From Thermotogaceae bacterium (GTDB taxonomy: Bacteria > Thermotogota > Thermotogae > MWEM01), in the NCBI GenBank assembly GCA_012744415.1, contig JAAYCF010000178.1, positions 1 through 32,490 of the forward strand: a stretch of 32,490 bases of DNA, given 5' to 3'. The notes under the pieces were generated by a model. The model worked only from the letters and a program-made list of their open reading frames with translations. It was not told where the DNA came from and ran no database searches. The position numbers and the translations under genes are program-made. Of this stretch, positions 13,050 through 31,037 are shown one piece after another (position 1 is the stretch's first letter; each line of letters begins with the position of its first letter).

Positions 13050-13079
13050 TTGACAATCGGGATTTAAATATGGTATAAC
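13050..13079 (+). promoter_or_regulatory. Promoter of leader 1 / SBP1 transcription unit
   Basis: TTGACA (13050-13055), 18-nt spacer, TATAAC (13074-13079). Closely matches the leader-2 promoter context ATGGTATAACACCCTTAAG. Confidence 0.75.
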
Positions 13080-13110
13080 ACCCTTAAGTTTTATCGAAGG
13101 ATGGGAATCT

Positions 13111-13203
13111 ATGCTTAACCGTTATTACGCTTTAACCATCGCCAATAAAAGTCATTCATTCGCTTTTGCTTTTCGAACAAAGCCCTCGTGTGGTTTTGTT
13201 TGA
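13111..13203 (+). CDS. Leader peptide 1: MLNRYYALTIANKSHSFAFAFRTKPSCGFV
   Basis: 30-codon ORF with upstream SD (gaaggatg). FAFAF precedes the RTKPSCGFV motif shared with leaders 2 and 3. Shared segment differs mainly at synonymous or third positions. Confidence 0.75.
   Translation: MLNRYYALTIANKSHSFAFAFRTKPSCGFV
13176..13200 (+). promoter_or_regulatory. Leader 1 switch hairpin
   Basis: AACAAAGCC(13176-13184)-loop CTCGTGT-GGTTTTGTT(13192-13200), 9 bp with one GU. Contains GCCCTC (13182-13187), complementary to GAGGGC of the terminator (13237-13242). Confidence 0.7.
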
Positions 13204-13231
13204 CTTTTCGTATAAAAAAGCGCAAAACGAC

Positions 13232-13266
13232 AAAAAGAGGGCACTGAAAGAAAGTGCCCTCTTTTT
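13232..13266 (+). terminator. Rho-independent attenuator-terminator 1, upstream of SBP1 start
   Basis: AAAAAGAGGGCACT-gaaagaa-AGTGCCCTCTTTTT, followed within about 12 nt by AAAAGGAGG SD and the ATG at 13290. Confidence 0.88.
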
Positions 13267-13289
13267 ATTTTTTAAAAGGAGGCGTCAAA

Positions 13290-14312
13290 ATGAGAAAAGG
13301 TTTGTTTGTGTTGTTGGTGTGTGTGATTGCGGTAAGCGGGGGGATGGCCATGTTTCGGATCGGGATGACCGCAATTGTCGATCATCCGGCTCTGGAGGCG
13401 ACACGGGAGGGGATCATAGACGAATTGATTCTTAGGGGATTCGCGCTCGGTACCGATTTCGTCGTGGAATTTCAATCGGCTCAAGGGAATATGAGCACGG
13501 CGGTTGCTATCGCCAATTATTTTCGTTCGAATCCGTTCGATCTGGTTGTCGCGATCTCTACGCCGTCGGCTCAAACCTGCGCCAATGCTATCCAAGGCGT
13601 TCCCGTTGTCTTTACGGCGGTAACGGATCCAGTGGATGCCGGGTTGGTTCCTTCCTTGGGTAAGAACCCGGGAAATGTGGTTGGCGTTAGCGATATGACG
13701 CCGGTCAAGACGCAATTCCAATTGATCCGCCTGGTGGTCCCGGAGGCGCGAACGGTCGGTATCGTCGCGAACCCGGGGGAGACGAATTCCCTGATAACGG
13801 TTGCGCACGCGCGCGCCGCCTGCGAGGAGCTGGGGTTTAAACTCGTAGAGATTCCCGGCAGTAATACCTCTGAGATGATAGCGGCCCTCACGGCGACCGT
13901 TGGGCAGATCGATGCGCTCTACGTCGGCACCGACAACACGGCCGCTTCCTGCATCGAATCGCTGCACCGCATCGCGCAGACCAACAAAGTCCCGATGATC
14001 AGCGGCTTCTTCACCCTGGCGCGATCTAACGGCGTGATCTCCTACGGTTTCGAATACTATAACCTGGGTTTGGATACCGGAGCAATCGTGTGGGATCTCT
14101 TGCACGGGAAACCGGTGTCCGAAATCGAATCGCGATTGATGAACGCCAATGCGCTTCTGCTGCTGATCGATTTGGACACGGCGAAAGAGATCGGGCTGTC
14201 GATACCGGAAACGCTACTGGCTCGCGCGGATTACCTCGTCGTCAATGGCGTTCAATGTCGAACGCGCGAATCGGCGCTTTCGGCAGGCATTAACAGCGAT
14301 AGCTGCCCCTAA
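13290..14312 (+). CDS. ABC transporter substrate-binding protein, TrpX/PF04392-like (paralogue 1)
   Basis: Start at 13290 (after SD aggagg) preferred to 13254, which lies inside the terminator. IVDHPALEATREGIIDELI..EFQSAQGNMSTAVAIANYF...GVSDMTPVKTQFQL...VGTDNTAASCIESLHRIA. Confidence 0.88.
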   Translation: MRKGLFVLLVCVIAVSGGMAMFRIGMTAIVDHPALEATREGIIDELILRGFALGTDFVVEFQSAQGNMSTAVAIANYFRSNPFDLVVAISTPSAQTCANAIQGVPVVFTAVTDPVDAGLVPSLGKNPGNVVGVSDMTPVKTQFQLIRLVVPEARTVGIVANPGETNSLITVAHARAACEELGFKLVEIPGSNTSEMIAALTATVGQIDALYVGTDNTAASCIESLHRIAQTNKVPMISGFFTLARSNGVISYGFEYYNLGLDTGAIVWDLLHGKPVSEIESRLMNANALLLLIDLDTAKEIGLSIPETLLARADYLVVNGVQCRTRESALSAGINSDSCP

Positions 14313-14318
14313 GCTATT

Positions 14319-15188
14319 CTACGATTTTTGAAAGCGGGTTAAGATACGGTCGACCGCTTTTTTTGCGGTCGGCGTCGTCGCAAGACCCCCCAATCCGGTT
14401 TCACGCAATTCCATCGGTAACGTCCGCCCGATCCGGCGCATCGCGTCGACGGTTTCATCGAACGGAATCACGGAGGAAACTCCCGACAAGGCCAATTCCG
14501 CAGCAGAGATCGCTGCGGTCACCGCGATCGCGTTCCGCTTGACGCAGGGGACCTCGACGAACCCGCCAACGGGATCACACACAAGACCTAACAGAGATTT
14601 TAGTACCAGAGCCGCCGCCGAATCGACCATTTCAGCGTCACCGCCGCTTAAGTAAGCCAATGCGCCCGCCGCCATAGCGGCCGCGCTGCCAATCTCCGCC
14701 TGGCAGCCACCTGCTGCTCCAGCCAAGGTCGCTTTCGTCGCGATGACGTTTCCGATGGCGCTCGCGAGAATATACCCCGGTAGAAGATGATCGAAAGGGA
14801 TTTCGTTTTCTTTCGCAAGCGCATAAAAAACACCGGGAATGACCCCGCTGGCGCCCGCGGTGGGGCACGCTACGACCCTTCCCATTGAAGCGTTGCTCTC
14901 GCAGATCGAGAGGCTGGCGACGATGGCGACATGGGTAAACGGGCTGTGATAAAGAACGCCGCGATCATATACTTTTTTGGCGTTTGTTCCGGTTAAACCG
15001 GTGAGGGTTTCCTGCACTTTCCCGTATTGTTTTTCAGATTCTTCCAAAATCACGCGCAGGAACTCCCCCAGTTGCGCGCGCGTCTCTTCCGGGTTGTTTC
15101 CCGTTTCAGACAGTTCGGCTACCAGAGCCGCTTCATGCAATGGGAGCTTGGTTTCTGATGCCATCTGTTTGATGCCGTTGAATGTCAC
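14319..15188 (-). CDS. sdaAA: L-serine dehydratase, iron-sulfur-dependent, alpha subunit
   Basis: NASMGRVVACPTAGASGVIPGVFYAL, GGCQAEIGSAAAMAAGALAYLSGG, CDPVGGFVEVPCVKRNAIA. Confidence 0.94.
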   Translation of the reverse strand: MTFNGIKQMASETKLPLHEAALVAELSETGNNPEETRAQLGEFLRVILEESEKQYGKVQETLTGLTGTNAKKVYDRGVLYHSPFTHVAIVASLSICESNASMGRVVACPTAGASGVIPGVFYALAKENEIPFDHLLPGYILASAIGNVIATKATLAGAAGGCQAEIGSAAAMAAGALAYLSGGDAEMVDSAAALVLKSLLGLVCDPVGGFVEVPCVKRNAIAVTAAISAAELALSGVSSVIPFDETVDAMRRIGRTLPMELRETGLGGLATTPTAKKAVDRILTRFQKS

Positions 15189-15880
15189 CGACCCTCGCCT
15201 CCCTTGCCTTGAATTGGCGCAGAGAGGCTTTTTACGTAGTAAGCCTCCTGAATTACCGATAAAGACTTGATTTCCAAGAGACTCCTCAACGTGAGGTCGC
15301 TGTCTAGTTCGACGATGGTGAGAGCTTTTGCCAGGAGTTTATTGATTCTTCGAAGGTAAAGATTCGCCACATTCGCGTCGATTTTCTCTAAAATCATGCC
15401 TAAAGCGCGTGGGGTGTCTTTATTCACGAGAATGAGGGTCGGGTATGCTCCCGAAAGATCGCAATCGACACCATTGATTTTGATGATTCGGATCATTCCG
15501 GCTCCCACAGAAGAAGCCCAGATTTCCTGCGGCATGGCGCCATCGTAAAGAAGCATCTTGACCGTATTGGGGTGAACCTCTCCCAGATCCTCCTGTTGGA
15601 AGGAGAAGTCCAAACCTCGAGAGAGGGCTAACGCGAACGCGTTTTTTACCGCCCGATCAGCATCTCCGAAACCCATCACGCCCCCCAGCAGCGCCCGATC
15701 GGTTCCGTGTCCCATATAGGTTTGGCCGAAAGACTGATGAAGGAAAAACTCGGCTTTATCAGGTGTTTTGCCTAAAAAATAGTTGCCGAAACGTCCGATC
15801 CGAAGCGCCCCTAAAGTATGAGAACTCGAAGGGCCTATCATGACAGGGCCTCCTACATCGAGTAGCGACACATCCGACAC
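15185..15880 (-). CDS. sdaAB: L-serine dehydratase, iron-sulfur-dependent, beta subunit
   Basis: LLDVGGPVMIGPSSSHTLGALRIG; FGQTYMGHGTDRALLGGVMGF; ACT-like C-terminus. 4-nt overlap with sdaAA. Confidence 0.94.
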   Translation of the reverse strand: MSDVSLLDVGGPVMIGPSSSHTLGALRIGRFGNYFLGKTPDKAEFFLHQSFGQTYMGHGTDRALLGGVMGFGDADRAVKNAFALALSRGLDFSFQQEDLGEVHPNTVKMLLYDGAMPQEIWASSVGAGMIRIIKINGVDCDLSGAYPTLILVNKDTPRALGMILEKIDANVANLYLRRINKLLAKALTIVELDSDLTLRSLLEIKSLSVIQEAYYVKSLSAPIQGKGGEGR

Positions 15881-15985
15881 CTCCTGGTATTTTGCTCTTC
15901 GATTCTATCATGGACGGCTCGGTTTCTTTTTTCGTTTTTTAATGGCAACCGTAAACGAGCCTTCTTTCTCGATTTCAAGACGGAT

Positions 15986-16015
15986 TTGACAAACGGGGCC
16001 TAATTATGGTATAAC
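15986..16015 (+). promoter_or_regulatory. Promoter of leader 2 / SBP2 operon
   Basis: TTGACA (15986-15991), 18-nt spacer, TATAAC (16010-16015), then ACCCTTAAG as at leader 1. Confidence 0.75.
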
Positions 16016-16045
16016 ACCCTTAAGATTTCGAAAGGATCGATGGGT

Positions 16046-16141
16046 ATGATGGAGATGTCAATCAGGACAGTATCCGTTTCCGTGAATGTATATGGCTTTT
16101 GGTATCGAACGAGGCCCTCTGGCGGTTTCGTTTGTCTTTGA
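16046..16141 (+). CDS. Leader peptide 2: MMEMSIRTVSVSVNVYGFWYRTRPSGGFVCL
   Basis: 31-codon ORF with SD-like aaaggat. YGFWY precedes RTRPSGGFV. The start may be at 16046, 16049 or 16055. Confidence 0.75.
   Translation: MMEMSIRTVSVSVNVYGFWYRTRPSGGFVCL
16108..16132 (+). promoter_or_regulatory. Leader 2 switch hairpin and alternative pairing element
   Basis: AACGAGGCC-CTCTGGC-GGTTTCGTT, 9 bp with 2 GU. Alternative: GTTTCGTTT (16125-16133) pairs AAACGAAAT (16148-16156), and GCCCTCT (16114-16120) pairs AGAGGGC (16160-16166). Confidence 0.72.
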
Positions 16142-16156
16142 GTATATAAACGAAAT

Positions 16157-16195
16157 GGAAGAGGGCACCGAAAAGAAGGTGCCCTCTTTTTTTTT
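16157..16195 (+). terminator. Rho-independent attenuator-terminator 2, upstream of SBP2 start
   Basis: AAGAGGGCACC-gaaaagaa-GGTGCCCTC followed by a long T tract; AGGAGG SD follows immediately, ATG at 16207. Confidence 0.9.
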
Positions 16196-16206
16196 AGGAG
16201 GTCAGG

Positions 16207-17190
16207 ATGAGGTTCAAAGGTCAGCTGTTTTTCTGTTTGTTTCTGTTTCTCGCGTTATCTGTTTTTAGTCTAACGAGGATAGGCATTACCGCTATTACCG
16301 ACCATCCGGCTTTGGACGCGATACGTTTTGGGATTATCGACGGGTTGATCCAGGAAGGGTTGGTTCTCGGTCAGGATTTCGAATTTGAGTTTCAATCGGC
16401 GCAAGGCAACATGAGCACCGCTTTGGCGATTGCCAACCACTTCAATTCCAACGCTTTCGATCTTGTCGTGCCAATCACCACCCCCTCTGCGCAAGCGTGC
16501 GCGAACGTGATCAAAAACAAACCTGTCATTTTCAGCGCCGCGACCGATCCAGTGGCCGCTTCCCTGATTCCGGCTTTAGGAAAAAACCCGGGGAATGTGG
16601 TGGGAGTAAGCGATATGACGCCGGTTAAAACCCAAATACAACTGATGAAATTGGTTGTCCCCGGGTTAAGGCGGATCGGGATTATGACCAACCCGGGCGA
16701 AGCGAATTCGACGGTGCTGAAAGACCATGCGCAGATCGCCTGCTCGGAATTGGACATCGAATTGGTCGAAGTCGTTGGGACAAACACCTCAGAGATGATC
16801 GCCGCCCTCAGCGCGATCGTCTCCGCCATCGATGCGATTTATATCGGAACGGACAATACGGCCGCTTCATGCATCGAATCTCTACACCGGATTGCCCTCG
16901 CTCAAAAAACACCGATCATTTGCGCCGATATTTCAATGTCTCGATCCGGAGGCATGATTGGCTACGGATTCGATTATTACGCGTTCGGAATCGATACGAG
17001 CCGCATGGTATTGGAAATCATCCGGGGTAAAACGCCTTCAGAGATCGAATCTCGTCTCATCGGGCCGGAGTCTTTGCAACTACTCATCAATTTGGACTAC
17101 GCGAAACAAATCGGGTTAATGATACCGGAAGCGTTGATCGCGAGAGCTTCTTTTATTATCGAAAACGGAGTTGAAAGAGAGATTAAATAA
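16207..17190 (+). CDS. ABC transporter substrate-binding protein, TrpX/PF04392-like (paralogue 2)
   Basis: Signal peptide; ITDHPALDAIRFGIIDGLI...EFQSAQGNMSTALAIANHF...GVSDMTPVKTQIQL...IGTDNTAASCIESLHRIA. Confidence 0.9.
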   Translation: MRFKGQLFFCLFLFLALSVFSLTRIGITAITDHPALDAIRFGIIDGLIQEGLVLGQDFEFEFQSAQGNMSTALAIANHFNSNAFDLVVPITTPSAQACANVIKNKPVIFSAATDPVAASLIPALGKNPGNVVGVSDMTPVKTQIQLMKLVVPGLRRIGIMTNPGEANSTVLKDHAQIACSELDIELVEVVGTNTSEMIAALSAIVSAIDAIYIGTDNTAASCIESLHRIALAQKTPIICADISMSRSGGMIGYGFDYYAFGIDTSRMVLEIIRGKTPSEIESRLIGPESLQLLINLDYAKQIGLMIPEALIARASFIIENGVEREIK

Positions 17191-17207
17191 CGGATCGGGG
17201 TGTTTTC

Positions 17208-18230
17208 ATGCTGGGGATCGTGGAACAAGGCTTGATTTTAGGATTGATGTCCATCGGGGTGTTTATTTCTTTTCGTATTGTCAATATGGCGGACCTGACC
17301 GTTGACGGAACCTTTGCGCTCGGGGGCGCGTTATGCGTCAGACTCTTCTCACTAGGACTGAATGCGCCGGTCTCTCTTCTCTTGAGTCTTTTAGCGGGCG
17401 CGGGTGCCGGCATTCTAACCGGATTTCTGCACCGCAAGTTGAAAATCAACGTTTTGCTTGCCGGTATCTTGGTCATGACGATGCTCTATTCCATCAATCT
17501 TCGGATTATGAATGGGCCCAACCTTCCGATTCCAAAAACGTCCGTGAGCGCTTCTTTGGGCACTTTTGAACAGGTAGCCGGAAAAGATCCGCTTGCGGAT
17601 TTATTTGAGCCTTCCGCCCCCGCCGCCGCGCCTCAGAAAGAAATCGCGAAACATAGAACCTTCGAGAACATCTTCCTCGGGACGGCGGACGGTCAAGATC
17701 TTCTGCTCCTGTCCGCGATCGTCCTGATTTGCGTCGCCTTGACCGGTCTCTTTCTTCGGACCGAACTGGGTACCGCTCTGCGCGGATTTGGAACGAATCC
17801 GTCCGGACTGGAATCCTTCGGATTGCCCAAGACGTTGATGACCTTGTTGGGTTTGGGTTTGGCCAATGCCTTTGTGAGCCTTTCGGGTGGGATATTCGCG
17901 CTATACAGCGGATTTGCGGATGTTACGATGGGGCAGGGTATGATCGTAACCGGCCTGGCGGTCGTGATGCTTGGGGAGATCTTGTTCGTCAGGAGAAAGC
18001 TCGTCTACGGTATCTTCGCCCCGATCTTGGGTGGCATCGTCTATCAGGGGATTTTAGCCGTTGTGATGCGGTACGGCTACCGGATCGGATTCCGAGCGAG
18101 CGACATGAAGCTGCTCACCGCGCTTTTCATCGTGGCAGTCATCGGGTTTGGGTTGATTCAGACGAAAAAACGCATGAAAGGGAAATTTCGTTTATCTACC
18201 ATTTTTGGTGGGGGTGTGGGCCGTGATTAA
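17208..18230 (+). CDS. ABC transporter permease (TrpY-like, BPD_transp_2 type)
   Basis: Polytopic; ADLTVDGTFALGGALCVRL, GTALRGFGTNPSGLESFGL, GGIFALYSGFADVTMGQGMIVTGLAVVMLGEIL; located 17 nt after SBP2. Confidence 0.9.
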   Translation: MLGIVEQGLILGLMSIGVFISFRIVNMADLTVDGTFALGGALCVRLFSLGLNAPVSLLLSLLAGAGAGILTGFLHRKLKINVLLAGILVMTMLYSINLRIMNGPNLPIPKTSVSASLGTFEQVAGKDPLADLFEPSAPAAAPQKEIAKHRTFENIFLGTADGQDLLLLSAIVLICVALTGLFLRTELGTALRGFGTNPSGLESFGLPKTLMTLLGLGLANAFVSLSGGIFALYSGFADVTMGQGMIVTGLAVVMLGEILFVRRKLVYGIFAPILGGIVYQGILAVVMRYGYRIGFRASDMKLLTALFIVAVIGFGLIQTKKRMKGKFRLSTIFGGGVGRD

Positions 18231-18990
18231 ACTGTCTGATGTCAGTGTGGTCTATCGAAAGGGTGAAGAGAACGAAAAATGCGCGTTGAAAAACGCAACG
18301 CTGCAGATCTCTCAAGGAGATTTTGTGATCATCGTCGGGCCGAACGGGGCAGGAAAGTCGACCCTCATGAAGGTATTGCTGTGCGAATTGGCGCCGACGG
18401 TAGGAACTTACTACTTAAATGGAAAATCAATGCGGGGGTTTTCTGTGACACAAGTGGCGCGTTGGGTCGGGCGTGTTTTTCAGGATCCAAACTCCGGCAT
18501 CTTTCCCGACCTCTCCATATTGGAGAATCTGTCGATAGCCTCTAAAAAAGGAGTTCGATGGCTGCGATTTCGAAGCTGTCCGCAAAAGGCGGTGTCCTTA
18601 CTCTCTCTTCTGGGATTGGGCTTGGAGAAAAACCTGAACACTCGGGCGGGTGACCTTTCAGGGGGACAGAAACAAGCCCTGGCGATGATCATGGCGATCA
18701 TTTCGGATCCCAAAGTCCTGCTTCTGGATGAGCATACCGCCTCTCTGGATCCGAAAAGCTCGGTCAAGGTCATGGAACTGACGCGTCAAATCAACGAACA
18801 GTTTGGGATCACGGTTGTGATGATTACCCATAATATGCCCTTTGCGGAACAATACGGAAACCGGAAATGGAAGATCGAAGAGGGTGAGGTTTACGAGTAC
18901 GAGTACCGACCGCCCGTCTGCTTGACCCGTTCGGAAAACCCGTTTCCGCTCGTGGGGGATCAGCGGCGCTGCGCGCCGAAATGCGTTTGA
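18205..18990 (+). CDS. ABC transporter ATP-binding protein (TrpZ-like)
   Basis: Walker A GPNGAGKST, signature LSGGQKQALAM, LLLDEHTASLDPKSS. Overlaps the permease; a GTG start at 18223 is also plausible. Confidence 0.92.
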   Translation: MVGVWAVIKLSDVSVVYRKGEENEKCALKNATLQISQGDFVIIVGPNGAGKSTLMKVLLCELAPTVGTYYLNGKSMRGFSVTQVARWVGRVFQDPNSGIFPDLSILENLSIASKKGVRWLRFRSCPQKAVSLLSLLGLGLEKNLNTRAGDLSGGQKQALAMIMAIISDPKVLLLDEHTASLDPKSSVKVMELTRQINEQFGITVVMITHNMPFAEQYGNRKWKIEEGEVYEYEYRPPVCLTRSENPFPLVGDQRRCAPKCV

Positions 18991-19103
18991 CCTTTGAAAA
19001 CGTCCGATATCTTTACATGAAGCCGCCAAGCTTGGCGACAGGTATTTTTAACACTGCGGCGAATGAATTATCGAAGCGTCGCGACGAAAGGATGTACAAA
19101 AAA

Positions 19104-19214
19104 ATGCGCAAAGAGAAAACGTGGATGCTTAAAATTAATGAAAGTGAGAACCAAATATCCCTTTACGCTTATTATCGGGCAAAGCCCTCCTGCGGCTTTG
19201 CTTTTCTTCCGTGA
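19104..19214 (+). CDS. Leader peptide 3: MRKEKTWMLKINESENQISLYAYYRAKPSCGFAFLP
   Basis: SD gaaaggatg at 19086-19093. YAYY precedes RAKPSCGFA, aligned to leaders 1 and 2. The start may be at 19104 or the internal ATG at 19125. Confidence 0.72.
   Translation: MRKEKTWMLKINESENQISLYAYYRAKPSCGFAFLP
19178..19202 (+). promoter_or_regulatory. Leader 3 switch hairpin
   Basis: GGCAAAGCC(19178-19186)-CTCCTGC-GGCTTTGCT(19194-19202), 9 bp. GCCCTC (19184-19189) is complementary to GAGGGC (19239-19244). Confidence 0.7.
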
Positions 19215-19236
19215 TTCGGGACGAAGGCGAAAAAAC

Positions 19237-19268
19237 AAGAGGGCATCGGAAACATGATGCCCTCTTTT
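19237..19268 (+). terminator. Rho-independent attenuator-terminator 3, upstream of SBP3 start
   Basis: AAGAGGGCATC-ggaaacat-GATGCCCTCTTTT, then AAAGGAGGAG SD and ATG at 19289. Confidence 0.88.
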
Positions 19269-19288
19269 ATTTTAAAGGAGGAGTCAAA

Positions 19289-20269
19289 ATGAAAAAAATG
19301 TTGTGGGTGCTTCTGTGTGCAGTAGTAATGAGCGTTTTCGGGTTTTCGACCGTAAGGATTGGGATCACCGCGATTGTCGATCACCCGGCGTTGGATTCCG
19401 CGCGGCTGGGGATCATCGAAGCGTTGGTTCAGCGGGGATTCGTTCTCGGAACGGATTTCGTCGTAGAGTTTCAATCGGCGCAAGGGAATATGAATACGGC
19501 GGTATCGATCGCCAATCATTTCCGATCCAGCGACTTTAGTCTGGTTGTCGGCATCTCAACTCCTTCGGCGCAAACGCTCGCGAACGCGATTAAGGATATT
19601 CCGGTGGTCTTTACCGCGGTCACGGATCCGGTAGCTTCCTCCCTGGTTCCATCCCTTGGGAAGAATCCGGGCAATGTCGTGGGGGTAAGCGATATGACCC
19701 CGGTGAAAACCCAGTTTCAACTGTTGAAATTAGTCGTTCCGACGGCTCAAAAGGTTGGGATTGTCACCAATCCGGGGGAAGCGAATTCGGTGATCGTGAC
19801 CGAACACGCGCGGCAGGCTTGCGAAGAGCTTGGATTAAGGCTGATCGAGGTCGTCGGCAGCAATTCTTCCGAGATGATCACGGCGCTGACGGCCGCGGTC
19901 GGGGAGTTGGACGCGCTTTATGTTGGAACAGACAACACCGCCGCTTCCTGCATCGAATCCTTGCATCGGATAACGGTGTCTAACAAGGTTCCCATGATGT
20001 GCGGAGACTTCACGCTCGCGCGCTCGGGTGGCGTGATGGCCTATGGTTTCGACTACTTCAACCTGGGTTTGGATACCGGCAAGATCGTCTGGGAGATCCT
20101 CAACGGGAAACCCGTCTCGGATATAGAATCGCGGTTGATGAACGCGGACTCCCTCCTGCTGCTGATCAATATGGATGTCGCGGAGGAGATATCCCTGGCC
20201 ATTCCGGATCTATTGATCGCTCGCGCAGATTTTCTCATCGTGAACGGTTCAGAACAACAAAAGCGTTAA
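19289..20269 (+). CDS. ABC transporter substrate-binding protein, TrpX/PF04392-like (paralogue 3)
   Basis: IVDHPALDSARLGIIEALV...EFQSAQGNMNTAVSIANHF...GVSDMTPVKTQFQL...VGTDNTAASCIESLHRIT. ATG at 19289 after SD; the listed 19211 start overlaps the attenuator. Confidence 0.9.
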   Translation: MKKMLWVLLCAVVMSVFGFSTVRIGITAIVDHPALDSARLGIIEALVQRGFVLGTDFVVEFQSAQGNMNTAVSIANHFRSSDFSLVVGISTPSAQTLANAIKDIPVVFTAVTDPVASSLVPSLGKNPGNVVGVSDMTPVKTQFQLLKLVVPTAQKVGIVTNPGEANSVIVTEHARQACEELGLRLIEVVGSNSSEMITALTAAVGELDALYVGTDNTAASCIESLHRITVSNKVPMMCGDFTLARSGGVMAYGFDYFNLGLDTGKIVWEILNGKPVSDIESRLMNADSLLLLINMDVAEEISLAIPDLLIARADFLIVNGSEQQKR

Positions 20270-26537: not shown

Positions 26538-29500
26538 CTATTCGTGGACTTGAATCTGGTATCCGTTTGTCACAAAGACGCGGCTCGGATCGTACATTTC
26601 ATACAGTACGGCTGGGGGCACCTGGAAAGTGCCCGCCGTGGTGATCGTGTAGTAATATTTTTCGTTGGCATTCCCCTCGCTCATGGCGCTGTAGAAAGCT
26701 GCCGTACGGTCGTAACGGTCCTCTTTGTGCGTGTACCAGAGCCAGTTGGATCCGTAACCAAAATACTTGCCTTCATAATAACCGTACTCGCCTTCGGCCT
26801 GTATGAAGGCAGCCGGTATCGAATCCTCCAGTACAGAATACGCCAGCGATTCGGTTGTGTTGATCGGAAACCGATGGCGCACCTTGTCTCCCACCTTCAA
26901 TACCGTTTTGTTCGGGACGAAGTAGAGGGAATAATGGCCGTCGTATCCTAACCACGGGTTTTTGTTCAGGACGAGATGATCCGGGTAGAAACCCAACACC
27001 CGGCAATTTTCTCCGAAAGAAAGTCCGGTATCGTGCCCGTTGACGAAAAGTTCGTACACATCGTCTTGATAGCGATCGGTGTAGGCATAAACCAATTCAT
27101 AGTTTGTTAAAAGAATCGGGTCGATGTCCACGGGAATCCCCTTCTGTACGATGAGGCCCGGCAAGATGGGCACATCCCACGGAAGATAGATATCGAAACG
27201 GTAGGTATCGATCTGGTCTTTGTCTTGATAGGTATAGCTTGTCACTTCGTACAACTTCTCCAGTTTTCTTGAAAAACGGGTTTCAGGGGTCTTTGTCTTG
27301 TAATCCTCCAGTTTCCACGTTTCCGTACCGGTTAATTTCCAGAGAAGCCCTTGCGTGCCGCTGATATCGATTTCAAGAGAATCGCCCGCGCGCAAACAAA
27401 TGGGAATCGTGAGGCGTTCTCCTTTCAGAAGGGTTCTTGCGTATTGGGTGAACTCCGGAATATAGTCGGAGAGATTGCCTTCCGCTTGCCAGACGTACTG
27501 GTCTGAGAGAAGCTCGTCTCCCGCGAGGGCCATGACGGCGAAGGAGGTGTCTTTGGTGGACGTCCAATACTCACCCGACCGGTTCTTGAACAGATAAAGG
27601 ATTAATCCGCGCTTTTCGGCGCCTTCGTAGGCAAGGGCATGCATCAAAGACAACAACAGGGCATTTTTCTGGAAGGAACTCATGAAGTAGGCGTTCTTTT
27701 CAAACCGCACATAGAATAACGGCGCCGCTCGCGTCCCTTGCCCGATAATCTCATTCAGCAGAGCGTCAGCCGCGGATTTCTCTCCCATCCTAACGAAAGA
27801 CAACGCCAAAAAAAGCTTCGTTTCAAGGTTATCGGTGGCCGTCAGGAGCAAGGGATACTCCGAGTCGAACAGTTTGATCACGTAATAGCAGAAGGCCTCA
27901 TACTCTTTTGCTTGCTTGATGACGTTTTTAAGAGCCTGTACTCCCATGGCCACGACGTCCTCGTTCACTTCGTAGCCGGACTGTTTCAATTGATCGAAAG
28001 CGTACAGGACATAGGCTGTCATAAAGGGATCCGAAGACCCTCCGGCCCACCATCCCCAGCCTCCCTGATAGTTCTGCAGCCCATACAACCTCTGAACGCC
28101 ATTTCGGATGATATCCTCTATCGCGTTGAACGGTTCTTGATCACCTATTTCCGGACGTTCCTGGATCAGATACCGGGCCACGATCGCCGGCAGGAACGAG
28201 CTGACAGTTTGTTCCACGCATCCATACGGATAGCGGATCAAATACCGTAAGGCTTCGAGCAAATCTCCCGAGATATCGGCGCTGATCGTCAGTGACAATC
28301 GGGTTTCCGTTTCCGCTTGGTAGGCGATCCTTTGGTTTTCAAGGCTTAGCAGGCCGCTGAGACCCGTCGGAATTTCCATCGTGTTCGGCTTCACGGGTAT
28401 CACATGCACCATCGCGTCGGAAGCCGTAACGCCTTCGGCTTTGAGGGAAAAGGCGAGCGATGTCTCCTGTTCCACCTCCGGAAGCGCGATCGTAAACCAG
28501 AAGACCCGACTGCTTCTCGCCGGTATGACTGCGGTTTGCACCAAAACTTCGCTTTGCGCTTCTTGCGGCAATCCTAAAGATACGGTAAAAGTTTCTTCTT
28601 GATCCAGACTGTTTCCGACCAGTAGGCCGACGCGCGTTTGATCTCCCGAGCGAAGGAACTTCGGGAACACCGGGTTGACCGTTACCGGAAGCGTCGACAG
28701 AATCTGGGTCTTGGCATATCCCGTTAACCCCGTTTTCGTAAAGGCCATCGCGCGCACACTCCAGGTCGTTAGGTCTTCGGGCAAGGTTATTTCTGTTTTG
28801 TCGCTGCCGGAAACCACCCATAAAGGCGTCCAAAAGGCCGTGTCCGAAAACTTCGTGCGAACCTTCACCGAACGGTTTGTTGCAGCTTGTTTCGTTTGCG
28901 CGAGCGTCTCCGCTGTTTCATAGACATAGTCGGACGATTGCGTATTCCTCAGACGGTAATAATAGTAAGAATCATTGAAATAATAAAAACCATATCGGAG
29001 GGGAGGATTGGTCAGAATGTTCAGCAAGCCTTCCCAATCATCGTCTCCGTAGAGATCGAGAACGGCCTGGTCCAGGATGCCCAGCGTCACGGCTCCTTCC
29101 ACCGGTTTTTCTTCTTTGTTCATCAGCTGCACTTCGAGAGGAATGGTTTCGCCGGGTCGGGTCTCTTCGGGCGCCCGTATAAGGATCGTCGCTTGGCGAT
29201 GACTCAAATCCACAGGAACGGATAGATACTTCGTCAACCATTTCGACCCGTAAAAGGACACGAATCGGCATCTCAAGGAAGAGGCATTGACTTTGTCGGA
29301 TACGTAGAAAGCAATCTGCCCGTTGCCGTTTTTGAGCTTTATTTCCCGAATACTGGCCTGGTTGCCGTCATCGATCAAAGCTAAAACGCTCAGCGACGGA
29401 AAGGAGGAAACCACATTGAAGATAATCTGATCGCCCGGGCCGGCGGTTTCCAGATTGGTGAAGACATCCAGCTCTTTGCCGGTTCGATAGGTATAGGTGG

Positions 29501-31037
29501 AAGCATAAGAGAACAAATACCGTTCCACGGCGTAAGCCGGATATTTCGCGTCAGTCAGGCGGAATCGGTAAGATCCCGGTTTTTTCGGTTCGTAGGCTAA
29601 CTGAAACGCCCCGTTTGGATCGGCATAGACGGTGGACGAAGCCTCGAGCGTGTCGTCGTAAAAGATTTCCAGGATCATCGCGCGGGCGATGTCAGCCTGC
29701 GAAAGGAGGCTTTTAACCTGTACGGTTCCGTTTGCCGTTTGTCCGAAGGGTAACCACGACTTCGAGAGCTTAAAATCGATCTCGACGTCGGAAGGAATAT
29801 ACCGGAAGAAGAGGGTGTCTTCGATCTCTCGGCCGGTCTGGTCGACTACCGTACAGGTGACCTGCACGTTCTGTTTTTTGTTTCGCGGGATTTGTAGCGA
29901 AGCGTTGGCGACGCCGTCTTTAACCGGAAAGACGCGGCTGTCCAGTATCTTTTCGGATTCGTCGTAGTAGTCTTCCGAAAGCTCGATGACGTGCAGGTGA
30001 AGATTGGCGTCCGAAACGCTTTGCCCGTAGTAGTAAGTGGCTTCCACACGCAGGTCTATCGGCTCGTCAAGCGCGAAAACCGGTTTTTGAAGCGCGGCCT
30101 TTACCGTAAACGAGGGCTTGGCGTAGTCCGCCAATTCAAAGTAACGAACGCTCTCTTTCTTTTCGAAACGAATCTTGACGGTATAGTGTCCCCGCGTATC
30201 ATCCGGGAAGGTTTCATAAATAAAGCTGATCCCTCCCCAAGAATCGGACTGAAAGACGCTTCTCATCTTTTCTCTTCCCAGCGGATCCTCGATAACGACT
30301 TCAACGGAACGCTGAGCCAACAATTCACCGGTTTGGGAATCCAATAAGACCGCCCGAGCCTGGACCAAATCCCCCGGACGATATAAAGGACGGTCCGTCA
30401 GGAAGATCAAAGGGTCGCGCTCCGCGTATTCCTGACGGAGGGAGTCCGAAAGGAACAGAATCCCATAAGGGGTTTCGATAAACAGCGTTTCTTCCACAAT
30501 CCTTGATTTCTCTATCTCGACGATACCCGTAGAAGGAGCTATTGATAGGGGTATCGGGGAAGTGTACCCCGTAACGATCTGCGTGAATCGGACATCCTTT
30601 CCTTCGGTGTTGTCCCAAAGCTTTAGGAAGACAGATTCACCCATGCTCACCAAAGCGCCGTTCACGTTCGTCTTCAGCAGGAGGGTGTAGTCTTTTTCGC
30701 TTTTCGAGACAAATTCAAGGAGGTAAGTTCCGGTTCTTTCAAAATAACCCGATGGGATCTCCAGACGTTTCCACATCTTCACTTCTTCAAAAAACAAAGT
30801 TTGATCAGACTGTTTGAGCGGCTTTTTTAAAGAATCGCTCTTGAATTCGCCCAAAAAATCTTGAAGCGCGGGACCCATATAGTATAGGTTGACGGTTACT
30901 CCGTCAGGTTCGTCATAGACCCAAAACGAGTAGGATTGATAAGGATAAAGAATGGCGTTTCTGTCCGTAGAGACGTAACCGAATGCGATACCCGATATCG
31001 CAATAAGAAAAAGAAAGAGCCATAAAGCGTTTTTCAT
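26538..31037 (-). CDS. Bacterial alpha-2-macroglobulin family protein with thioester motif
   Basis: 1499 aa with signal peptide; LFLTDRPLYRPGDLVQARAVLLDS, RAMAFTKTGLTGYAKT, thioester motif YPYGCVEQTVSSFLP, QNYQGGWGWWAGGSSDPFMTAYVLYAF. Confidence 0.93.
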   Translation of the reverse strand: MKNALWLFLFLIAISGIAFGYVSTDRNAILYPYQSYSFWVYDEPDGVTVNLYYMGPALQDFLGEFKSDSLKKPLKQSDQTLFFEEVKMWKRLEIPSGYFERTGTYLLEFVSKSEKDYTLLLKTNVNGALVSMGESVFLKLWDNTEGKDVRFTQIVTGYTSPIPLSIAPSTGIVEIEKSRIVEETLFIETPYGILFLSDSLRQEYAERDPLIFLTDRPLYRPGDLVQARAVLLDSQTGELLAQRSVEVVIEDPLGREKMRSVFQSDSWGGISFIYETFPDDTRGHYTVKIRFEKKESVRYFELADYAKPSFTVKAALQKPVFALDEPIDLRVEATYYYGQSVSDANLHLHVIELSEDYYDESEKILDSRVFPVKDGVANASLQIPRNKKQNVQVTCTVVDQTGREIEDTLFFRYIPSDVEIDFKLSKSWLPFGQTANGTVQVKSLLSQADIARAMILEIFYDDTLEASSTVYADPNGAFQLAYEPKKPGSYRFRLTDAKYPAYAVERYLFSYASTYTYRTGKELDVFTNLETAGPGDQIIFNVVSSFPSLSVLALIDDGNQASIREIKLKNGNGQIAFYVSDKVNASSLRCRFVSFYGSKWLTKYLSVPVDLSHRQATILIRAPEETRPGETIPLEVQLMNKEEKPVEGAVTLGILDQAVLDLYGDDDWEGLLNILTNPPLRYGFYYFNDSYYYYRLRNTQSSDYVYETAETLAQTKQAATNRSVKVRTKFSDTAFWTPLWVVSGSDKTEITLPEDLTTWSVRAMAFTKTGLTGYAKTQILSTLPVTVNPVFPKFLRSGDQTRVGLLVGNSLDQEETFTVSLGLPQEAQSEVLVQTAVIPARSSRVFWFTIALPEVEQETSLAFSLKAEGVTASDAMVHVIPVKPNTMEIPTGLSGLLSLENQRIAYQAETETRLSLTISADISGDLLEALRYLIRYPYGCVEQTVSSFLPAIVARYLIQERPEIGDQEPFNAIEDIIRNGVQRLYGLQNYQGGWGWWAGGSSDPFMTAYVLYAFDQLKQSGYEVNEDVVAMGVQALKNVIKQAKEYEAFCYYVIKLFDSEYPLLLTATDNLETKLFLALSFVRMGEKSAADALLNEIIGQGTRAAPLFYVRFEKNAYFMSSFQKNALLLSLMHALAYEGAEKRGLILYLFKNRSGEYWTSTKDTSFAVMALAGDELLSDQYVWQAEGNLSDYIPEFTQYARTLLKGERLTIPICLRAGDSLEIDISGTQGLLWKLTGTETWKLEDYKTKTPETRFSRKLEKLYEVTSYTYQDKDQIDTYRFDIYLPWDVPILPGLIVQKGIPVDIDPILLTNYELVYAYTDRYQDDVYELFVNGHDTGLSFGENCRVLGFYPDHLVLNKNPWLGYDGHYSLYFVPNKTVLKVGDKVRHRFPINTTESLAYSVLEDSIPAAFIQAEGEYGYYEGKYFGYGSNWLWYTHKEDRYDRTAAFYSAMSEGNANEKYYYTITTAGTFQVPPAVLYEMYDPSRVFVTNGYQIQVHE

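What the first reader, a model, noticed from the sequence alone, without database searches (positions are those of the whole stretch)
13050..19291. Three paralogous translation-dependent attenuators, one ahead of each TrpX-type binding-protein gene
Each of the three SBP genes (13290, 16207, 19289) is preceded by the same ordered module: leader ORF, aromatic-codon cluster, 9-bp hairpin with 7-nt loop, spacer, and a rho-independent terminator ending within about 20 nt of the SBP start codon. A terminator this close to the start codon makes sense only as a conditional one. The module recurs three times in 6 kb with diverged sequence but conserved architecture, which argues for function. Classical peptide-leader attenuation (trp, phe, his operons) and T-box control of trpXYZ-type transporters in Firmicutes are established. 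This leader family on PF04392-type genes is one I do not recognise.
Basis: partly seen in the sequence, partly recalled or inferred. Interest (0 to 1): 0.93.

Follow-up and report, generated by a model that had tools for sequence, protein, structure and literature searches.

The report
Aromatic leader-peptide attenuators on importer genes
In a Thermotogota bacterium that appears unable to make its own aromatic amino acids, each of three genes for an amino-acid-capturing protein is preceded by a small 'sensor' gene rich in Phe, Tyr or Trp codons and an RNA switch that should let transcription through only when ribosomes stall for lack of those amino acids; the same switch recurs across the phylum but is not in the RNA family database.

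Summary
Each of the three PF04392 binding-protein genes (13290, 16207, 19289) follows a leader ORF with an aromatic-codon cluster, a hairpin (P1), and an intrinsic terminator ending about 20 nt before the start codon.

All 27 full-length PF04392 genes found in 61 Thermotogota genomes have the same leader. Arm sequences differ between families, but three-way complementarity is kept, and the last aromatic codon always lies 2-8 nt before the antiterminator. Covariance models searched over 104 genomes land almost only before this gene, aroF, or trpE. The trpE leaders carry Trp-only clusters. No T-box or other Rfam family matches.

The host and its sister genome lack trpE, DAHP synthase and chorismate synthase, so they probably depend on import. 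Paralogue A alone lost the acidic residue linked to Tyr binding, and its leader alone carries a Phe-only cluster.

Mechanism: classical ribosome-mediated transcription attenuation. A new, phylum-wide member of a known kind; nothing was tested at the bench.

The parts
13050..13079 (+). Promoter A, TTGACA-18-TATAAC
   Evidence: 11 of 12 consensus bases; most relatives have a similar promoter before the leader
13111..13203 (+). Leader ORF A, MLNRYYALTIANKSHSFAFAFRTKPSCGFV*, with AAGGA ribosome-binding site at 13097-13101
   Evidence: frame kept in sister genome G001, with a 3-nt indel
13159..13173 (+). Sensing codons A: Phe-Ala-Phe-Ala-Phe
   Evidence: G001 orthologue Phe-Val-Phe-Ala-Phe
13173..13203 (+). 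P1 hairpin A (anti-antiterminator), arms 13173-13184 and 13192-13203
   Evidence: -14.7 kcal/mol
13182..13242 (+). Antiterminator A: outer GCCCTC(13182-13187):GAGGGC(13237-13242), inner GTTTTG:CAAAAC(13223-13228)
   Evidence: -17.5 kcal/mol; 3 of 300 shuffles as stable
13232..13272 (+). Intrinsic terminator A plus T-run
13290..14312 (+). Binding protein A (PF04392), separate transcription unit without its own permease; Phe at the Tyr-OH position
15986..16015 (+). Promoter B, TTGACA-18-TATAAC
16046..16141 (+). Leader ORF B, MMEMSIRTVSVSVNVYGFWYRTRPSGGFVCL*
16091..16105 (+). Sensing codons B: Tyr-Gly-Phe-Trp-Tyr
   Evidence: G001 Tyr-Tyr-Phe-Trp-Tyr
16106..16134 (+). P1 hairpin B
   Evidence: -13.3 kcal/mol
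16114..16166 (+). Antiterminator B: outer GCCCTCT:AGAGGGC, inner TTTCGTTT:AAACGAAA
   Evidence: -21.1 kcal/mol; 0 of 300 shuffles
16157..16196 (+). Intrinsic terminator B plus T-run
16207..17190 (+). Binding protein B (PF04392), first gene of the transporter operon
17208..18230 (+). Permease (PF02653), TrpY-like position
18205..18990 (+). ABC ATPase (PF00005), TrpZ-like position; start codon uncertain
19104..19214 (+). Leader ORF C, MRKEKTWMLKINESENQISLYAYYRAKPSCGFAFLP*; no promoter found, probably internal to the operon
19164..19175 (+). Sensing codons C: Tyr-Ala-Tyr-Tyr
   Evidence: same in G001
19177..19203 (+). P1 hairpin C
   Evidence: -14.8 kcal/mol
19184..19244 (+). Antiterminator C: outer GCCCTC:GAGGGC plus inner helix
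   Evidence: -23.8 kcal/mol; 1 of 300 shuffles
19237..19273 (+). Intrinsic terminator C plus T-run
19289..20269 (+). Binding protein C (PF04392); Asp at the Tyr-OH position

Best explanation
Each leader is a classical ribosome-mediated transcription attenuator. When Phe/Tyr/Trp-tRNA is charged, the ribosome runs through the aromatic codons to the leader stop codon inside or just past P1, covers strands needed for the antiterminator, and RNA polymerase stops at the terminator just before the binding-protein gene. When the cognate aminoacyl-tRNA is scarce, the ribosome stalls on the aromatic codons and covers the 5' arm of P1. The P1 loop and 3' arm then pair with the stretch leading into, and including, the terminator's 5' arm; the terminator cannot form and the gene is transcribed. 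Without translation, P1 forms and transcription ends. Shown here: ORFs, codons, spacing, the competing structures, their conservation, and the downstream gene families. Inferred: stalling, read-through, tRNA charging as the signal, and substrates. Leader B governs the shared permease and ATPase; A and C govern extra binding proteins that probably feed the same transporter.
For: 27 of 27 full-length PF04392 genes in 61 genomes carry the module. Three-way complementarity of antiterminator, terminator 5' arm and terminator 3' arm persists with different sequences in different families: GCCCTC, GACACCC, ACGTCCT, GGCATCCAC, TGTCCTTTTC. P1 in alignment A2 has changes on both sides at all 5 pairs. 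Last aromatic codon to antiterminator is 2-8 nt in all 27. Promoter TTGACA-17/18-TATAAT-like at most leaders. Frame kept between species, with indels only of 3 nt. Covariance-model hits over 104 genomes: of 60 fetched loci (some duplicates), 43 before PF04392 genes, 13 before aroF, 1 before trpE, 3 weak others. trpE leader clusters are Trp only: WWWLW, WWWH, WWWH, WWH. Host and sister genome lack trpE, DAHP synthase and chorismate synthase. Terminator B cannot serve an upstream gene, since the neighbour is on the other strand.
Against: No expression, term-seq or ribosome-profiling data were available. Folding energies were computed at 37 C with the ribosome mimicked by leaving out bases. In the window's own copies the outer antiterminator helix is only 6-7 bp. 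The host genome is 91% complete in 418 contigs, so missing genes are not proof of auxotrophy. Some relatives, such as L020, have a leader stop codon earlier than the typical place.
Confidence: 0.9

Rival explanations
1. A nascent-peptide arrest leader (like TnaC): the peptide itself, with free aromatic amino acid, stalls the ribosome, rather than uncharged tRNA.
For: Residues after the cluster are conserved within the host genus (R-T/A-K/R-P-S-C/G-G-F).
Against: That conservation follows from the RNA arms (GCCCTC encodes P-S); in other families the same place reads KDTQLG, RRNVLSS or QVPSWR. The codon identity follows the downstream gene (Trp only for trpE). Free amino acid as inducer would make little sense for an importer in an auxotroph.
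Confidence: 0.04
2. A riboswitch or protein-binding antiterminator that senses the amino acid directly, with the ORF incidental.
For: Alternative structures alone do not prove ribosome involvement.
Against: The conserved element across families is the in-frame aromatic codon cluster at fixed spacing, not a conserved unpaired RNA core; mean column identity is 57% over the 27. No Rfam match.
Confidence: 0.03
3. T-box tRNA-sensing leaders, as on Streptococcus trpXYZ (PMC9382623).
For: Same gene family and same physiological signal in Firmicutes.
Against: No T-box match at gathering threshold in the window or relatives, nor at relaxed threshold in the window; leaders A and B run only about 220-240 nt from promoter to gene; a 2008 survey listed no T-boxes in Fusobacteria/Thermotogae (2 genomes; PMC2494555).
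Confidence: 0.01
4. Ordinary 3' terminators of upstream genes with chance small ORFs.
For: Leader C lies downstream of the ATPase gene.
Against: Leader B has no co-directional upstream gene; promoters lie upstream of A and B; the whole module is conserved in 27 of 27 homologues with alternative pairing.
Confidence: 0.02

Closest known systems
Enterobacterial trp and pheA leader-peptide attenuators (trpL, pheL; Rfam RF00513 Trp_leader)
   Same: Short ORF with cognate codons at the base of a 1:2 hairpin, 2:3 antiterminator, 3:4 terminator, starvation expected to give read-through.
   Different: No sequence relation (no RF00513 match); controls ABC importers as well as biosynthesis; mixed Tyr/Phe/Trp clusters; outer antiterminator arm lies in the P1 arm end and loop; one copy lies inside an operon; phylum Thermotogota.
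T-box leader of Streptococcus suis trpXYZ (PMC9382623)
   Same: Same importer family, transcription attenuation, presumed aminoacyl-tRNA signal.
   Different: Senses uncharged tRNA directly by RNA with no leader ORF; about 460 nt; T-box sequence absent here.
uORFC-13-1 motif before aroF in Acholeplasma (PMC8632094)
   Same: Aromatic-codon leader plus terminator before DAHP synthase; predicted attenuation.
   Different: Confined to Acholeplasma and environmental sequences, Phe codons, before aroF only; relation to the present family not tested.
Earlier predictions of attenuators in Thermotogales (Vitreschak et al. 2004; Lopatovskaya et al. 2010), recalled from memory and not held in the library
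   Same: As I recall, the 2004 abstract lists Thermotogales among lineages with candidate leader-peptide attenuators of biosynthetic operons.
   Different: I recall no mention of PF04392 importers; I could not read either paper, so priority for aroF/trpE leaders may be theirs.

Membership tests
Ribosome-mediated (leader-peptide) transcription attenuator | Short translatable ORF upstream with ribosome-binding site and conserved frame | tested here: met
   frame kept between species; translation itself not shown
Ribosome-mediated (leader-peptide) transcription attenuator | Cluster of regulatory codons cognate to the controlled pathway | tested here: met
   3-7 aromatic of 8 codons; Trp only before trpE
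Ribosome-mediated (leader-peptide) transcription attenuator | Intrinsic terminator before the structural gene | tested here: met
Ribosome-mediated (leader-peptide) transcription attenuator | Mutually exclusive antiterminator and a first hairpin competing with it | tested here: met
Ribosome-mediated (leader-peptide) transcription attenuator | Read-through on starvation for the cognate amino acid, dependent on leader translation | not testable with these tools
   needs term-seq or reporters
T-box riboswitch | Stem I specifier loop and T-box antiterminator bulge (Rfam model match) | tested here: not met
Rfam Trp_leader (RF00513) | Match to the covariance model | tested here: not met
PF04392 ABC_sub_bind aromatic amino acid binding proteins | Pfam score over cut-off; relatives with bound Phe, Tyr or Trp | tested here: met
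   (224-250 bits, cut-off 25.9); nearest structures 3LKV, 6HNI, 3LFT (ligands from PMC6816091)
TrpX equivalog NF041285 | Score over the curated cut-off of 390 bits | tested here: not met
   219-229 bits

The most novel reading that the evidence does not exclude
The three attenuators are a codon-addressed input panel. Each binding protein carries a leader that samples the amino acid it captures (A Phe, C Tyr), while leader B, sampling Tyr, Phe and Trp together, sets the dose of the shared permease and ATPase. After gene duplication, the binding pocket of A (Asp to Phe at the Tyr-OH position) and its sensing codons (to Phe only) changed together, and C became an attenuator inside the operon.
Probability: 0.4. 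Interest if true: 0.65.

Novelty: new member of a known kind. Interest (0 to 1): 0.55.

Why it matters
It gives Thermotogota a widespread aromatic regulon (importer, aroF, trpE) controlled by leader peptides where Rfam lists nothing, and shows the same importer family under a different RNA sensor than the T-box of Firmicutes. Because leader codons report what the cell is short of, they can be used to predict substrates of uncharacterised binding proteins. The matched change of pocket residue and codons in paralogue A is a directly testable case of sensor and transporter evolving together.

Tried and rejected
(1) One alignment of all 27 leaders (A1) put the two clades' terminators out of register, so models were built per clade (A2/R1, A3/R2). 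(2) Mononucleotide shuffles of the outer helix alone do not support the window's copies; the whole antiterminator had to be scored. (3) T-box, Trp_leader and all other Rfam families rejected; the three matches with E below 1 in the window were far below their gathering scores. (4) The Moraxella and Serratia relatives of the binding protein that were looked at have no such leader. (5) Two Halanaerobiales-like MAGs (L045, L049) have a Tyr-rich leader and terminator, but no convincing antiterminator was found. (7) Literature searches found no description of attenuators on these importers in Thermotogota; subscription papers are mostly not held. (8) Weak R1 hits L107-L109 do not precede aromatic genes and were treated as chance.
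Full report
What is there. The window is a contig of a Thermotogota-class genome (G000, 2.63 Mb in 418 contigs, 91% complete). Its sister genome G001 matches the MAG 'Thermotogae bacterium ADurb.Bin062' (a contig of the same length, closest hit). Three PF04392 binding-protein genes (A 13290, B 16207, C 19289) lie with one permease (17208) and one ATPase (18205). A stands alone; B, permease, ATPase and C form one row on the + strand. Two genes on the other strand separate A from B.

The leaders. Each binding-protein gene is preceded by a leader ORF (A 13111-13203, B 16046-16141, C 19104-19214), an aromatic cluster (FAFAF, YGFWY, YAYY), a 10-12 bp hairpin P1 with a 7-nt loop (-13 to -15 kcal/mol), and a strong terminator ending 17-24 nt before the ATG. 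A and B have TTGACA-18-TATAAC promoters; C has none in either genome.

The missing piece. The sequence GCCCTC spanning the end of the P1 5' arm and its loop pairs with GAGGGC of the terminator's 5' arm, and the P1 3' arm pairs with the bases just upstream of that arm. With the bases under a stalled ribosome left out, the RNA folds into this antiterminator at -17.5, -21.1 and -23.8 kcal/mol; 3, 0 and 1 of 300 shuffles are as stable. The outer helix alone is not significant in these three copies.

Conservation. A PF04392 search of 61 genomes gave 27 full-length genes, and all 27 have the leader ORF, antiterminator complementarity and terminator. Nearly all have a good promoter; the exceptions are the two C copies and L010, which lies too near a contig end to judge. 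The antiterminator and terminator arms read GCCCTC in one set of families, GACACCC in Petrotogaceae-like genomes, ACGTCCT in Mesotoga-like genomes, and GGCATCCAC or TGTCCTTTTC elsewhere, yet remain complementary in all three arms. Family names here are my reading of kinship and named relatives. P1 shows changes on both sides at all five consensus pairs in alignment A2. The distance from the last aromatic codon to the antiterminator is 2-8 nt in all 27, with 3-7 aromatic codons of 8. A ribosome halted on these codons would cover about the next 9 nt (general knowledge of ribosome footprints), which in the window's leaders is the P1 5' arm.

A regulon. Covariance models R1 and R2 were run over 104 class genomes. 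Of 60 loci fetched, 43 lie next to and upstream of a PF04392 gene, 13 upstream of DAHP synthase (aroF, usually followed by a tyrA-like gene), 1 upstream of trpE, and 3 weak ones elsewhere; some loci are duplicates of one place. A trpE leader in G080 was also found by the pattern search. Codons follow the gene: trpE leaders read WWWLW (G080), WWWH (G031, G022) and WWH (G005), aroF leaders are Tyr-rich with Trp and Phe, and importer leaders mostly mix all three. This link between codon and pathway is what the attenuation model predicts.

Physiology. G000 and G001 have no trpE, DAHP synthase or chorismate synthase match, whereas many relatives do. They are probably aromatic auxotrophs, which would explain three binding proteins and tight starvation control. 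Both are incomplete MAGs, so this is inference, though absence in both makes chance gaps less likely.

Pocket and codons. In solved relatives, Glu263 of CD0873 bonds the Tyr hydroxyl, Ala replaces it in the Phe- and Trp-bound relatives, and Gln for Tyr279 admits Trp (PMC6816091). All Thermotogota proteins examined have Asp at the first position and Tyr at the second, except paralogue A and its orthologue, which have Phe at the first. Their leaders are also the only ones with a Phe-only cluster (FAFAF, FVFAF). A and C are sisters, with B outside, in one clade of the genus, so this is a single evolutionary event and suggestive only.

Known or new. Ribosome-mediated attenuation is a textbook mechanism. 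The library has T-box control of trpXYZ in Streptococcus (PMC9382623), leader peptides for hisS/hisZ in bacilli (PMC2965389), an aroF leader in Acholeplasma (PMC8632094), and the statement that Rfam's amino-acid attenuators covered only His, Leu, Thr and Trp and may have originated in gamma-proteobacteria (PMC3766115). I found nothing on Thermotogota importers. From memory, a 2004 comparative study listed Thermotogales among lineages with candidate attenuators, so aroF or trpE leaders may have been predicted before. I file this as a new member of a known kind.

Noticed in passing
L145, L152, L153, L154 (upstream of aroF in G100, G010, G056, G002): aroF leaders with strong Tyr clusters (HNYYYFWFNKGTCP, NYAYYYYYHHPRL, NAYYYNNRSICL, TTYFYYYHKSKRP) but different hairpin layouts from the importer family; their switching logic was not worked out.
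   Followed up: partly
L045 and L049, upstream of the PF04392 gene: Halanaerobiales-like Bacillota MAGs have a Tyr-rich leader (MGRQNSFFTSSYYSYYYYPRKRE*) and a terminator before the same gene family; possibly an independent origin.
   Followed up: partly
L142, L143 (trpE of G031, G022): Trp-only leader clusters (NWWWHLG*, RNWWWHL*) with a terminator GGGCATCC..GGATGCCC before trpE.
   Followed up: partly
window 14319-15880, minus strand: Two genes that look like the two subunits of L-serine dehydratase lie between binding-protein units A and B; identified by eye from the translation only.
   Followed up: no
window 26538-31037, minus strand: A 1499-aa protein resembling bacterial alpha-2-macroglobulin by its translation; not checked.
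   Followed up: no
G000:C161:10241-11041 and similar places in other genomes: Weak PF04392 matches inside much longer open frames (about 770-840 aa in several genomes), suggesting a PF04392-like domain fused to something else.
   Followed up: no
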